From positions 172,441 to 236,440 of the forward strand of contig JANXBS010000003.1 in the NCBI GenBank assembly GCA_025060615.1: a stretch of DNA of 64,000 nucleotides, read 5' to 3'. The stretch is from Anaerolineae bacterium. Lineage in GTDB: Bacteria; Chloroflexota; Anaerolineae; DUEN01. Position 1 is the first letter of the stretch. Every line of letters starts with the position of its first letter. The translations under genes and the position numbers were made by a program. The notes beneath the pieces are model-generated. The model ran no database searches, was not told the origin of the DNA, and was given only the letters and a program-made list of their open reading frames with translations. This document shows positions 2,892 through 7,077 of this stretch, one piece after another.

Positions 2892-3446
2892 CTACGTGTC
2901 TGATTCATCCAAAGAGCCATCGCCGTTGTAGCTCCAGCCAGGCGTGAGCTCGCGGTCTTGGGTCACGCTGCCACTGCCGCGCACCATCGCGATGCGGCCA
3001 GTGCGCACCATCTCCAGGATGCCGAAATGGCTTAGCAAGTTGATGAGGGAGTTCACCCGGCTCTCTGGGCCGCTGATCTCTACCACCAGAGAATCCAGGG
3101 CCACGTCTACAATCCGGGCACGGAAGATGTCCGCTAATTGGACGATCTCCGAGCGCTGCGCGCCGGTGGCTTTGACTCGGATCAGTGCCAGCTCTCGGAT
3201 CACGGCCGGCTTGTTGGTCACATCCTCGACGCGGGTGACGTTGATCAGTTTCTCAAGCTGTTTAATAGACTGATCTACGGTACGCTCGTCGCCATCCACG
3301 ACAAACGTCATGCGGCTAATGCCTGGCGTCTCGCTATGGCCGACGGCCAGGCTGTCAATGTTAAAATTGCGCCGGCGAAACAGCCCCGCCACCCGATTTA
3401 GAACGCCAGGTTTGTCTTCCATCCAGGCGATCACAGTGTGTTTCAT
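2892..3446 (-). CDS. ilvN: acetolactate synthase small (regulatory) subunit
   Basis: Regulatory subunit of acetohydroxyacid synthase, conferring activation and valine feedback inhibition on IlvB. The N-terminal ACT domain begins [23 protein letters not shown] and contains [10 protein letters not shown], both classic IlvN/IlvH signatures. A second ACT-like C-terminal domain covers residues 80-160. Length 184 aa is slightly above the roughly 165 aa typical of the family because of a short acidic tail after about residue 160. It follows ilvB after a 96-nt gap with no obvious terminator, consistent with one ilvBNC transcript. Confidence 0.95.
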
Positions 3447-3542: not shown

Positions 3543-5264
3543 TCACCATGACGGTTCCACGCCGGAATAGCCTTGCACGATCCGCGGCTTGGGGCGGCGG
3601 ATCATCTCGCTGACTGCAGCGCCCGGCGCCACCATTGGGTAGACGTTCACCTCTTCCTTGACCTGGAAGGAGATCAGGAAGGGGCCCTCGGTGGCCTGAG
3701 CTTCCGCGATGGCCTCTGCCACCTGTTCGTTTCTGGTCACATGGCGCGCTGGGATCCCGTAGGCGTCAGCTAGTTTTACATAATCAGGGTTAAAAATGGG
3801 CGTGCCGGCGTAGCGCTTCTCGTAGAAGAACTGCTGCCACTGGCGTACCATGCCCAGGAAGCCGTTTACGATGATGGCGATCTTAATAGGGATCTTCTCC
3901 TGCACGATAGTGCCTAGCTCTTGCATTGTCATCTGGAATCCGCCGTCACCGCAGACAGCCCACACCTCTGCGTCCGGGTTACCTAGCTTGACCCCCATCG
4001 CCGCGGGGACGGCGAACCCCATCGTGCCTAGGCCGCCCGAGGTGATCAGTTGCCGCGGGCGCTCGTGGATGTAGTATTGGGCTTCCCACATCTGGTGCTG
4101 GCCCACATCGGTGACGATGATGCAGTTTTTGCCTTTCGTCGCCTGCCAGAGCTGCCGCATCACGAAGGGAGGGATCAGCTCATCCACCTCGGTGTTGGCG
4201 ATATCGCGTTCCCACGAGTCCTGCCGCCAGACGTTGATCTGGTTCAGCCATTCCTCGTGACGGGCGGGCTGGATCAGGGGCAGCAGGGCGCCTAGGGTGT
4301 CCTTGCAGTTGCCGAGCACCGCGACATCCGGCTTCACATTTTTACCGATCTCGGCCGGGTCAATCTCGAAGTGGATGATCTTAGCTTGTTTAGCGAACTT
4401 GTCTAGCCGCCCAGTGATACGGTCGTCGAACCGCATGCCGATGGCGATCAACACATCGCAAGCCTGGATGGCCTGGTTGGCGTACGCCTCGCCATGCATC
4501 CCTCCCATGCCTAGGCACAGCGGATGAGCCTCCGGGATGTCCCCGATGCCCAGAAGGGTGGTCACCACGGGGATCTCAGCCTTTTCCACCAGTTGGCGGA
4601 GCTCCCAGGTGGCGTCACCGAGCTGGACGCCGTGGCCAGCCAGGATCAGAGGGCGCTGGGCTGAGTTAATGAGGTCGGCGGCGGCTTTGACGGCGTTGGG
4701 ATCAGGGGGTTGAGGCAGACGAAGGCCCGGCAAGTGGACTGAGGTGGGGTAGACGAATTCCGTCTTCGCCTGTTGGGCATCTTTGGCGATGTCCACCAAC
4801 ACGGGGCCTGGCCGGCCCGTGCGGGCGATATAGAAGGCCTCTGCCATGACGCGAGCCAGATCGCGTACATCGGTGACGAGATAGTTGTGTTTCGTGATCG
4901 GGAGCGTAATGCCGGTAACATCTGTCTCCTGGAAAGCATCGCCGCCGATCAGGTAAGAGGCTACTTGGCCCGTAATGGCGATGATGGGCACAGAGTCCAT
5001 CATGGCGTTAGCAATTCCGGTGACTAAGTTGGTCGCCCCCGGTCCGCTAGTAGCCAGACAGACCCCGACCTTGCCTGTAGAGCGGGCGTAGCCATCGGCT
5101 GCGTGGGCGGCGGCTTGTTCGTGCCGCACCAGGATATGGCGGATCGGGTAGTCAATCATGGCATCATAGGTGGGCAGGATTGCCCCACCGGGATGGCCAA
5201 ACACGATATCTACTCCTTCGCGGAGCAGACATTCCCATACGATCTGAGCACCGGTCAGTAACAT
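3543..5264 (-). CDS. ilvB: acetolactate synthase large (catalytic) subunit
   Basis: Thiamine-diphosphate enzyme forming acetolactate or acetohydroxybutyrate, the first common step of Val/Leu/Ile synthesis. The N-terminal pyrimidine-binding domain contains [15 protein letters not shown] and the catalytic glutamate in [15 protein letters not shown]. The FAD/central domain follows. The C-terminal ThDP motif begins [13 protein letters not shown] and continues to the [12 protein letters not shown] loop that places substrate. Length 573 aa is normal. The ATG is preceded by GGGAGGGAGG. It is the first structural gene after the leader peptide and attenuator at 5403-5573, so its transcription should respond to charged Leu/Val/Ile-tRNA. 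Confidence 0.97.
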
Positions 5265-5402: not shown

Positions 5403-5433
5403 AATAAAAAACCCCTCCTGGTTCAGGAGGGGT
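5403..5433 (-). terminator. intrinsic terminator of the ilv attenuator
   Basis: Read on the minus strand, a perfect 9-bp stem (CCCCTCCTG with CAGGAGGGG, 3-nt loop) is followed at once by a run of six T. It lies between the leader peptide and ilvB, 138 nt before the ilvB start, so it is an attenuator rather than an end-of-operon terminator. A competing pairing partner lies upstream at 5472-5485. Confidence 0.92.
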
Positions 5434-5515
5434 CTTCATTGACAGCTTAGCAGGTACGGCCCTAGCTATAGCCTCCCAAACCAGGATAGCTCCCGGACCT
5501 TAAGGACCAGGAGCT
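5412..5515 (-). promoter_or_regulatory. ilv attenuator RNA: pause hairpin and antiterminator arms
   Basis: Three alternative structures can be drawn on the minus-strand RNA. A 12-bp pause hairpin with one mismatch and a UUAA loop occupies 5488-5515 inside the leader ORF. The arm CCUGGUUUGGGAGG (5485-5472), which overlaps the last leader codons, can pair along all 14 positions (two G-U pairs) with CCUCCUGAACCAGG (5430-5417). That pairing destroys both arms of the terminator. A ribosome stalled on the Leu/Val/Ile codons would leave the 5472-5485 arm free (readthrough). A ribosome reaching the stop codon would cover it (termination). This is inferred by hand folding. Confidence 0.85.
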
Positions 5516-5573
5516 CTACCGCTACGAGGCTAATAAGGGCCAGCGCCTGCATCATGTTCGCTATCTCGTCCAT
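5466..5573 (-). CDS. ilvL: ilv leader peptide (35 aa)
   Basis: Regulatory leader peptide of the ilvBNC-leuA operon. The ORF starts 20-odd nt after the predicted transcription start with an AAGGA site, and encodes 35 residues. Codons 11-29 contain twelve Leu, Val or Ile residues out of nineteen, including the run ELLVLK. The stop codon lies just beyond the antiterminator arm, exactly where a translating ribosome would mask it. The product is not expected to have a function other than control. The symbol follows the enterobacterial naming by analogy, not by homology. Confidence 0.85.
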   Translation of the reverse strand: MDEIANMMQALALISLVAVELLVLKVRELSWFGRL

Positions 5574-5599
5574 ATTCCTTATTAAGGGAAAGCAAAGTT

Positions 5600-5628
5600 A
5601 GTATAGCATTTCTCTCCCATTTTGTCAA
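5600..5628 (-). promoter_or_regulatory. promoter of the ilv operon
   Basis: Perfect -35 TTGACA (5628-5623), 17-nt spacer, and -10 TATACT (5605-5600) preceded by TGC, i.e. also an extended -10. The predicted start near 5593 gives a leader of about 330 nt before ilvB, holding the leader peptide and attenuator. It lies in the gap downstream of asnS. Confidence 0.88.
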
Positions 5629-5733: not shown

Positions 5734-7077
5734 CTAAGGGTAAATGCGGTTAAGCATGCGAGGATAGGCGATGGTCTCTCGCACGTGATCAATGCCGCAG
5801 ATCCAAGCCACCACGCGCTCAATGCCTAGTCCAAAGCCGGAATGCGGCACCGAGCCATACTTGCGCAGGTCAATATACCACTCGTACGCTTCGCGCGGCA
5901 GATGATGCCTTTCAATGGCCTTCACAAGCAAGTCTGGATCGCTCATGCGTTCCGAGCCGCCGGTGATCTCCCCATATCCCTCCGGTGCCAGCAGATCCAC
6001 GCTGCGACACACCTCCGGCCGGTCAGGCTCCGGTTCCATGTAAAAGGCTTTGACCGCCGTCGGGTAGTGGTGAACGAACACGGGTTTCTCAAACTGGCTT
6101 GCGAGGAACGTCTCGTGAGGTGCGCCGAAATCATCGCCCCACGGCAGCGGCGGCAGCGGCTCGTTGTTGGGCGGGACGAGGCAGCCCTGGGCGGCAGCTT
6201 GGTTGATCAGCTCCACCGCCTCATCGTAGGAGATGCGCGGGAACGGCGGTTCCACCTTTTCCAGCCGAGATAGATCGCGCTCCAGCACCTTGAGCTCGTT
6301 TGGGCGATTGCGCAACACTGTTTGCACTACGTGGCTCACCAGTTGCTCTTCGATCTCCATCAGCTCATCGAGCTGGCAAAAGGCGATCTCCGGCTCTACC
6401 ATCCAAAACTCCTGCAGATGGCGGCGGGTCTTCGACTTCTCGGCCCGAAAGGTCGGCCCGAAACAATACACCTTGCCGAAAGCGAAGATGTTGGCCTCGT
6501 TATAAAGCTGGCCAGATTGGGTTAGATATGCCGGAATGCCATGATAATCGGTGGGAAAGAGGGTGCTCGTCCCCTCGGCAGCCGACGGCGTGAGGATGGG
6601 CGTATCTACCAAGAGGAAACCGTGATCGTCCAGCCAGTTGCGAATGGCCCGGATGATTTCGGCGCGAATGCGCAGGATGGCCCACTGGCGGCTGGAGCGA
6701 ATCCACAGGTGGCGACGGTCCAGCAAAAACTCGACGCCGTGCTCCTTGGGGGTGATCGGGTAGTCCTGCGCGAACTGAAGGACCGTCAGATCCTGAACGT
6801 CCAGCTCATAGCCCCCAGGGATGCCCGGTGCTCGCTGATCCTGGCGTACTGTACCTGTGACGATCAGCGACGACTCCTGCGTCAGCCGACGGGCGCTCTC
6901 GAAGGCCTGTGGGCTCACGTTCTTTTGAAACACCACGGCCTGCATGATGCCTGTGCCATCGCGTACCTGCAAGAACTGCAGCCGGCCTTTGTCGGTTTTG
7001 TGATACAGCCAGCCCCGGATGATCACCTCTTCGCCCACGTGCCGGGCGATGTCCTCGATTCGTACGATCCTGGCCAC
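5734..7077 (-). CDS. asnS: asparaginyl-tRNA synthetase
   Basis: Charges tRNA-Asn with asparagine; cytoplasmic class IIb synthetase. The N-terminal OB-fold anticodon-binding domain ([19 protein letters not shown]) covers about residues 1-110. The catalytic domain carries motif 2 ([21 protein letters not shown]) and motif 3 ([15 protein letters not shown]). The latter pattern and the absence of a GAD domain fit AsnRS rather than bacterial AspRS. The frame is open to a GTG at 7113, but I choose the GTG at 7077 because AGGGGG lies four bases before it and homologues begin there. It is monocistronic in appearance, with a TATAAT-type -10 upstream. Confidence 0.94.

What the first reader, a model, noticed from the sequence alone, without database searches (positions are those of the whole stretch)
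5403..5628. Complete leader-peptide attenuator before ilvB in a Chloroflexota-like genome
Seen: consensus promoter, 35-codon leader with twelve Leu/Val/Ile among codons 11-29, an antiterminator arm (5472-5485) covering the last leader codons that pairs at all 14 positions with the terminator region, a pause hairpin, and a U-tailed terminator, then ilvBNC-leuA. Known: ilv attenuation is described in enterobacteria and in Corynebacterium; T-boxes are common elsewhere. Inference: control by charged Leu/Val/Ile tRNA here, apparently an independently evolved or retained attenuator in this phylum. All elements are in the order the model requires, which makes chance unlikely.
Basis: partly seen in the sequence, partly recalled or inferred. 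Interest (0 to 1): 0.78.

Follow-up and report, generated by a model that had tools for sequence, protein, structure and literature searches.

The report
Leader-peptide switch controlling branched-chain amino-acid genes
Upstream of the leucine/valine/isoleucine synthesis operon of this Chloroflexota bacterium lies an RNA switch that uses the speed of a ribosome translating a tiny Leu/Val/Ile-rich peptide to decide whether transcription continues, and the same switch is conserved across much of the phylum, where no public RNA-family library lists it.

Summary
On the minus strand, a strong promoter (5628-5600), a short ORF with 12 Leu/Val/Ile codons, a hairpin (5515-5488), a 14-bp antiterminator arm (5485-5472) and a U-tailed terminator (5432-5406) precede ilvB-ilvN-ilvC-leuA. 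The mechanism is classic ribosome-mediated attenuation. In folding simulations the antiterminator never forms without a ribosome, forms with probability about 0.95 when a ribosome stalls at codons 11-26, and is masked beyond them.

Comparative data decide it. 55 Chloroflexota loci with different upstream genes share the layout. The antiterminator covaries over 51 distinct sequences (84% paired, 9 of 12 pairs with two-sided changes), and the leader hairpin covaries too. A covariance model finds 48 of 75 held-out loci at E<1e-4, none of 13 non-Chloroflexota. In 251 genomes of the phylum, 27 of its 30 fetched top matches precede ilvB or ilvD. Leu/Ile/Val codons in leaders are strongly biased to CUU, AUU and GUA/GUC, also outside the hairpin. 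Five relatives carry two such attenuators in series.

Rfam has no match; I found no description for this phylum, but a 2010 comparative survey could not be read. New member of a known kind; function is inferred, not measured.

The parts
5600..5628 (-). sigma-70-type promoter TTGACA-N17-TATACT
   Evidence: 11 of 12 consensus matches; a score of at least 10/12 upstream of the leader in 26 of 52 loci against 0.9 expected
5466..5573 (-). leader peptide ORF MDEIANMMQALALISLVAVELLVLKVRELSWFGRL (35 codons; start may be codon 7 or 8 at 5555/5552)
   Evidence: ORF list; BCAA-rich homologous leaders in 55 Chloroflexota loci
5496..5543 (-). control-codon window, codons 11-26 (11 of 16 are Leu/Val/Ile): ribosome stall here permits the antiterminator
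   Evidence: stall simulation, P(antiterminator) 0.94-0.95; 56% LVI inside against 26% outside the permissive window over 54 loci
5488..5515 (-). leader hairpin P1 AGCUCCUGGUCC-UUAA-GGUCCGGGAGCU (probable RNA-polymerase pause hairpin)
   Evidence: positionally conserved: in most relatives it ends 4-6 nt before the antiterminator arm (exceptions mainly among Caldilineaceae), with arms of covarying sequence
5472..5485 (-). antiterminator 5' arm (region 2), inside leader codons 30-34
   Evidence: 14 of 14 pairs with 5430-5417; covariation over 51 sequences
5417..5430 (-). antiterminator 3' arm (region 3), overlapping terminator 5' arm and loop
5406..5432 (-). intrinsic terminator CCCCUCCUG-AAC-CAGGAGGGG-UUUUUU
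   Evidence: folds with probability 1.00 in the untranslated leader; conserved with covariation
3543..5264 (-). ilvB, acetolactate synthase large subunit
   Evidence: NCBIfam TIGR00118 above cut-off
2892..3446 (-). ilvN, acetolactate synthase small subunit
   Evidence: NCBIfam TIGR00119
1837..2844 (-). ilvC, ketol-acid reductoisomerase
   Evidence: NCBIfam TIGR00465
2..1609 (-). LeuA-like 2-isopropylmalate synthase ORF, runs off the window
   Evidence: open ORF, identified by eye from its sequence

Best explanation
A ribosome-mediated transcription attenuator controlling ilvBNC-leuA by the supply of charged Leu, Val and Ile tRNA. Transcription starts near 5593 and a ribosome translates the leader. 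With enough Leu/Val/Ile-tRNA the ribosome reaches the stop codon and covers the arm 5485-5472, so the terminator forms and transcription stops before ilvB. If a Leu/Val/Ile-tRNA is short, the ribosome stalls at codons 11-26, which opens the pairing that otherwise sequesters the arm but leaves the arm free; it then pairs with 5430-5417, which blocks the terminator, and the operon is transcribed. The hairpin 5515-5488 probably pauses RNA polymerase until the ribosome arrives. Shown: the elements, their pairing, conservation and covariation. Inferred: translation, stalling, pausing and the physiological response.
For: Anatomy at the stated coordinates. Simulated switching: P(antiterminator) 0.00 with no ribosome, 0.94-0.95 for stalls at codons 11-26; at codon 29 and beyond the arm is covered by the modelled ribosome. 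Same layout in 55 Chloroflexota loci, terminator about 20-55 nt after the leader stop. Antiterminator covariation: 84.3% of cells paired against 73.9% in shuffles (0/500), covariation score 0.379 against 0.202, partners slid by one column drop to 53-54%. P1 and terminator covary. A model trained on 24 loci finds 48 of 75 others at E<1e-4, none of 13 non-Chloroflexota, and in 251 genomes its 30 fetched top matches lie before ilvB (10), ilvD (17) or other genes (3). LVI codons concentrate in the permissive window, 680/1204 against 147/569, with a synonymous bias opposite to ilvB itself. The upstream gene is asnS only in the window, so the terminator is not that of the upstream gene.
Against: No expression, ribosome-profiling or tRNA-charging data. 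The sequence in front of the first ATG is a poor Shine-Dalgarno site (AAGGA only 2 nt away) and the start is uncertain. A pairing that sequesters the arm without a ribosome is present in the window but not in about half of the relatives. The register of the antiterminator alignment was chosen by pairing and relatives are not independent, so shuffle counts overstate significance. The simulation assumes a fixed ribosome footprint and stops when region 3 is complete.
Confidence: 0.93

Rival explanations
1. The terminator only ends the upstream gene's transcript (asnS), and the Leu/Val/Ile-rich ORF is chance.
For: asnS lies upstream on the same strand, ending at 5734.
Against: Promoter and leader lie between asnS and the terminator. 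In relatives the upstream gene differs, is often on the other strand, and is asnS only in the window, while leader, arm and terminator stay with ilvB or ilvD.
Confidence: 0.02
2. The short ORF encodes a functional small membrane protein with its own terminator.
For: Hydrophobic run of about 20 residues with a recurring C-terminal motif (P-V-G-R/E).
Against: The recurring motif is the codons that form the antiterminator arm. In L015, L018, L019 and L023 the stop lies before the arm, yet the RNA arm is kept. In the window two compensating one-base indels relative to L083-L085 change the residues but keep the frame and give a perfect helix. LVI make up 58% of the run while Phe, Ala and Met are scarce.
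Confidence: 0.03
3. A metabolite riboswitch, T-box or protein-bound antiterminator operates here and the ORF is incidental.
For: Other bacteria control ilv genes by T-boxes or ppGpp riboswitches (PMC2494555, PMC10272879).
Against: No Rfam match in the window, in a permissive scan of the region, or in 20 related loci. What is conserved is coding frame, control codons and a helix that overlaps codons.
Confidence: 0.02

Closest known systems
E. coli and Salmonella leader-peptide attenuators (ilvB, leu, trp)
   Same: Short leader ORF rich in codons for the product amino acids, antiterminator and terminator that share sequence, ribosome position as sensor, biased synonymous control codons (PMC1183508).
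   Different: No sequence relation seen and no Rfam match. The control codons are CUU/AUU/GUA, not CUA for Leu. The leader hairpin P1 and the antiterminator arm are adjacent rather than sharing an arm; a 1:2-type sequestering pairing is present in the window but not in about half of the relatives.
Corynebacterium ilvB-II motif / ilvBNC leader (PMC10272879; PMC11857589)
   Same: BCAA-rich leader ORF before ilvBNC with hairpins and a U-tailed terminator.
   Different: 15-17-codon leader described only from one genus of another phylum; here 28-35 codons with a different RNA layout.
ilvB-OMG and Leptospira ilvB motifs (described in PMC10272879)
   Same: RNA motifs before ilvB with predicted BCAA-rich leader ORFs.
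   Different: Separate families in other groups; our region matches no Rfam family.
Salmonella mgtCBR tandem attenuators (PMC3641672)
   Same: Two leader ORFs in series before one operon, as in five relatives of the window.
   Different: mgtCBR responds to other signals with two unlike leaders; the Chloroflexota tandems repeat the same BCAA design. The window itself has a single copy.
T-box of Dehalococcoides ileS and trp genes (PMC2494555)
   Same: RNA control of amino-acid genes in Chloroflexota.
   Different: Senses tRNA directly, with no leader peptide; absent here.

Membership tests
Ribosome-mediated (leader-peptide) transcription attenuator | Short ORF between promoter and first structural gene | tested here: met
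Ribosome-mediated (leader-peptide) transcription attenuator | Run of codons for the pathway's amino acids at the place where a stall matters | tested here: met
   11 of 16 codons in window codons 11-26; 680/1204 against 147/569 over 54 loci
Ribosome-mediated (leader-peptide) transcription attenuator | Intrinsic terminator before the structural gene | tested here: met
Ribosome-mediated (leader-peptide) transcription attenuator | Mutually exclusive antiterminator using part of the terminator | tested here: met
   14-bp helix, covariation over 51 sequences
Ribosome-mediated (leader-peptide) transcription attenuator | Arm masked by a ribosome at the stop codon and sequestered (1:2) without translation | tested here: inconclusive
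   Masking follows from its position; the 1:2-type pairing is present in the window, but P(antiterminator) without ribosome exceeds 0.5 in about half of the relatives
Ribosome-mediated (leader-peptide) transcription attenuator | Readthrough rises when the cognate charged tRNA falls | not testable with these tools
   needs an experiment
Leader families, T-box and ppGpp/ykkC RNAs held in Rfam 15 | Covariance-model score at or above the gathering cut-off | tested here: not met
   no match in the window or in 20 related loci; best permissive matches far below cut-off
Chloroflexota BCAA attenuator defined here (model R1) | P1 hairpin, antiterminator arm in the last leader codons, complementary terminator, BCAA-rich leader, BCAA gene downstream | tested here: met
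   window scores 77 bits, E = 1.3e-22, but it is one of the 24 training sequences; held-out loci

The most novel reading that the evidence does not exclude
The window holds one member of an undescribed, phylum-wide family of leader-peptide attenuators. In much of this family the arm is not sequestered by a 1:2 hairpin and is switched off only by direct occlusion under the translating ribosome. Its control codons are synonymous codons avoided in ordinary genes (CUU, AUU, GUA), as selective-charging theory would predict. In some lineages the whole attenuator is duplicated, so that two ribosome-controlled terminators sit in series before ilvD or ilvB.
Probability: 0.45. Interest if true: 0.65.

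Novelty: new member of a known kind. Interest (0 to 1): 0.52.

Why it matters
Leader-peptide attenuation was first known from Proteobacteria and Actinobacteria; a 2010 survey stated that no such system had been shown elsewhere and reported Firmicutes as an addition (PMC2965389). A family conserved over much of Chloroflexota, before ilvB, ilvD and once an ilvE-like gene, suggests that ribosome-coupled transcription control operates in this poorly cultivated phylum, and it supplies many natural variants of one switch. The codon bias offers a test, outside the enterobacteria, of the theory that control codons are those whose tRNA loses its charge first. The tandem copies allow a test of how two ribosome-controlled terminators in series combine.

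Tried and rejected
Rfam scans, strict and permissive, of the window region and of 20 related loci: no family at the cut-off. Searching the window's genome for a second copy: only the one match by DNA and by the model; a short peptide query was uninformative. A second conserved element between the terminator and ilvB in relatives was modelled separately (R2); its strong matches were essentially its own training loci, and the short pattern is too common in the genome to inform. The idea that it is an ANTAR-type hexaloop was dropped because no paired upstream hairpin was seen. The loosest leader-plus-terminator filter also passed five Acidobacteria loci; they were left out of the counts and do not reach E<1e-4 with model R1. 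The swap test by duplex energy alone separates own from swapped partners only moderately (own partner matched or beaten by about 31% of swapped leaders), because all members share the GUUGG core; the column-wise count is the better test.

Full report
OBSERVATION. The finding lies on the minus strand between asnS (ends at 5734) and ilvB (starts at 5264). The sequence contains a TTGACA-17-TATACT promoter at 5628-5600 and an ORF of 35 codons from 5573 to 5466 with Leu/Val/Ile at twelve of codons 11-29. It also contains a strong hairpin at 5515-5488, an arm at 5485-5472 that pairs at all 14 positions (two G.U) with 5430-5417, and a nine-pair G+C-rich terminator stem with six U at 5432-5406. The leader folds with z = -5.97 against 200 dinucleotide shuffles. 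Downstream genes are ilvB, ilvN and ilvC, followed by a LeuA-like ORF that runs off the window (identified by eye). Two points differ from the first description. The start codon is uncertain: in relatives L084 and L085 the start falls at codons 7-8 of the window's ORF, so the peptide may be 28-29 residues. And the individual motif scans are not significant alone; the proof is comparative.

CONSERVATION. IlvB relatives were fetched from 84,980 species genomes and from the window's own relatives. Of 108 loci, 66 pass a simple filter for a BCAA-rich ORF followed by a U-tailed terminator. After removing duplicates and five non-Chloroflexota loci, 55 distinct Chloroflexota loci, the window included, remain. 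The terminator begins about 20 to 55 nt after the leader stop. The upstream gene changes in identity and strand, and is asnS only in the window, so the terminator belongs to the leader and not to the gene before it. A promoter of at least 10/12 is found before the leader in 26 of 52 loci, against 0.9 expected.

ANTITERMINATOR. In nearly all of these loci the last leader codons contain a segment around GUUGG that is complementary to the terminator's loop and 5' arm. Twelve columns on each side could be aligned for 54 loci, 51 of them distinct. On that alignment 84.3% of cells form standard pairs against 73.9% after shuffling (0 of 500 as high), nine of twelve pairs show changes on both sides, the covariation score is 0.379 against 0.202, and sliding the partners by one column drops pairing to 53-54%. 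Shuffles do not remove relatedness, and the register was chosen by pairing, so the numbers overstate significance; the diversity of pair types (for example G-C, U-A and C-G at one position) carries the argument. A striking case is nearest home. Relative L083 has a 13-nt arm and a 13-nt partner, the window has 14 and 14, and L084 and L085 have 13 and 14 with one bulge. In the window the added base is compensated by a lost base just upstream, so the reading frame is kept.

LEADER HAIRPIN. A hairpin lies just upstream of the arm and in most loci ends 4-6 nt before it (exceptions mainly Caldilineaceae), with arms as different as GCUCCCGG/CCGGGAGC and CAUCCUUAUU/GAUAAGGAUG. RNAalifold on 24 loci finds it and the terminator, with two-sided changes in 13 of 18 pairs. 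The recurring peptide motif (Q/K-E/D-P-x-P-V-G) is thus explained by two RNA helices that overlap codons. Four loci place the stop codon before the arm and still keep the arm.

SWITCHING. I folded the window's transcript up to the end of region 3, with RNA hidden up to 12 nt beyond the first base of the A-site codon. Without a ribosome the antiterminator has probability 0.00, because the arm is sequestered by upstream leader sequence, and the terminator has 1.00. With stalls at any tested Leu/Val/Ile codon from 11 to 26 the probability is 0.94-0.95. From codon 29 on, the arm itself is under the ribosome. Over 54 loci, codons inside the permissive window are 56% Leu/Val/Ile (680/1204) against 26% outside (147/569). 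The sequestering pairing is not universal: the median probability without ribosome is 0.62, so in many relatives the translating ribosome may be the only thing that hides the arm.

CODON CHOICE. In the leader runs Leu is CUU in 51% (5% in ilvB), Ile is AUU in 75% (27%), Val is GUA in 35% (9%), while CUG and GUG are avoided. Ala and Gly codons keep their GC-rich usage. The bias is the same upstream of the hairpin, where no pairing constrains it. This agrees with the theory that control codons are those most sensitive to loss of charging (PMC1183508), but tRNA levels are unknown here.

DISTRIBUTION. A covariance model from 24 loci finds 48 of 75 held-out loci at E<1e-4 and none of 13 from Acidobacteria or Myxococcales. 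In 251 genomes of the phylum, 30 top matches were fetched: ten lie before ilvB, seventeen before ilvD, three before other genes; three of the thirty are training loci. Many loci first scored as negative carry the attenuator about 2 kb upstream, before ilvD of an ilvD-ilvB operon; in L105 it precedes an IlvE-like ORF (identified by eye).

TANDEM COPIES. In L064 (Thermoflexus), L075 and L078 (Anaerolineales), one promoter is followed by two complete leader-terminator units about 190 bp apart and then ilvD. L033 has two units before ilvB, and L073 two before ilvD. In the four loci tested, each arm pairs best with its own terminator (scores 23-36 own, 16-19 crossed). Tandem leader-ORF attenuators are known for Salmonella mgtCBR (PMC3641672), with other signals. 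The window has a single unit.

COMPARISON. It works like the enterobacterial amino-acid attenuators and meets the sequence-level features that could be tested, except that a 1:2-type protector is not a general feature of the family. It matches no Rfam family. Similar designs are described before ilvB in Corynebacterium and predicted elsewhere (PMC10272879, PMC1262725). Chloroflexota are so far noted for T-boxes (PMC2494555, PMC3766115). I found no report of leader-peptide attenuators in this phylum in eight library searches, but the most relevant survey (Lopatovskaya et al. 2010) is not held.

VERDICT. A real, conserved ribosome-mediated attenuator; a new member of a known kind, with unusual breadth, codon bias and tandem relatives that make it more than routine. 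The physiological response is inferred, not shown.

Noticed in passing
L064:521-1000, L075:705-1185, L078:742-1231, L033:2480-3005, L073:560-1150: Two complete BCAA leader-peptide attenuators in series, before ilvD or ilvB; in the four loci tested each antiterminator arm matches its own terminator far better than the other one.
   Followed up: partly
window 5400-5300 (-); L002, L004, L005, L007, L009, L011, L014, L027, L050, L059, L061, L069, L100 about 90-220 nt before ilvB: Between the attenuator and ilvB many relatives carry a small hairpin with a covarying stem (GAGGC/GCCTC, GGGC/GCCC, GCGGC/GCCGC) and a 5-6-nt loop (AACGTA, AATGTG, ATAGAC), whose 3' arm overlaps a second, leaderless U-tailed terminator. 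What it senses is unknown; the window's version is weak.
   Followed up: partly
L035-L045, between first terminator and ilvB: Ardenticatenia-type loci have a different second terminator (GCAGAAAAC...GTTTTCTGC-T6), often with an ACGGCCGT palindrome upstream.
   Followed up: no
L051, L053, L062, L065, L074 (Acidobacteria/Terriglobia), 70-260 nt before ilvB: Leu/Val/Ile-rich short ORFs followed by terminators also occur here (for example ...LSVLLRVLVLRSIRPPGGSGI in L051 and L053), not matched by the Chloroflexota model at E<1e-4; possibly a separate attenuator family.
   Followed up: no
L129 and L133: Strong matches to the attenuator model lie before an ORF with a PucR-type helix-turn-helix domain (Pfam for L129; L133 is similar by eye) rather than a BCAA enzyme gene.
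   Followed up: no
all leader runs, e.g. window 5543-5496 (-): Synonymous bias to CUU, AUU and GUA/GUC in leaders, opposite to ilvB codon usage and independent of hairpin pairing.
   Followed up: partly
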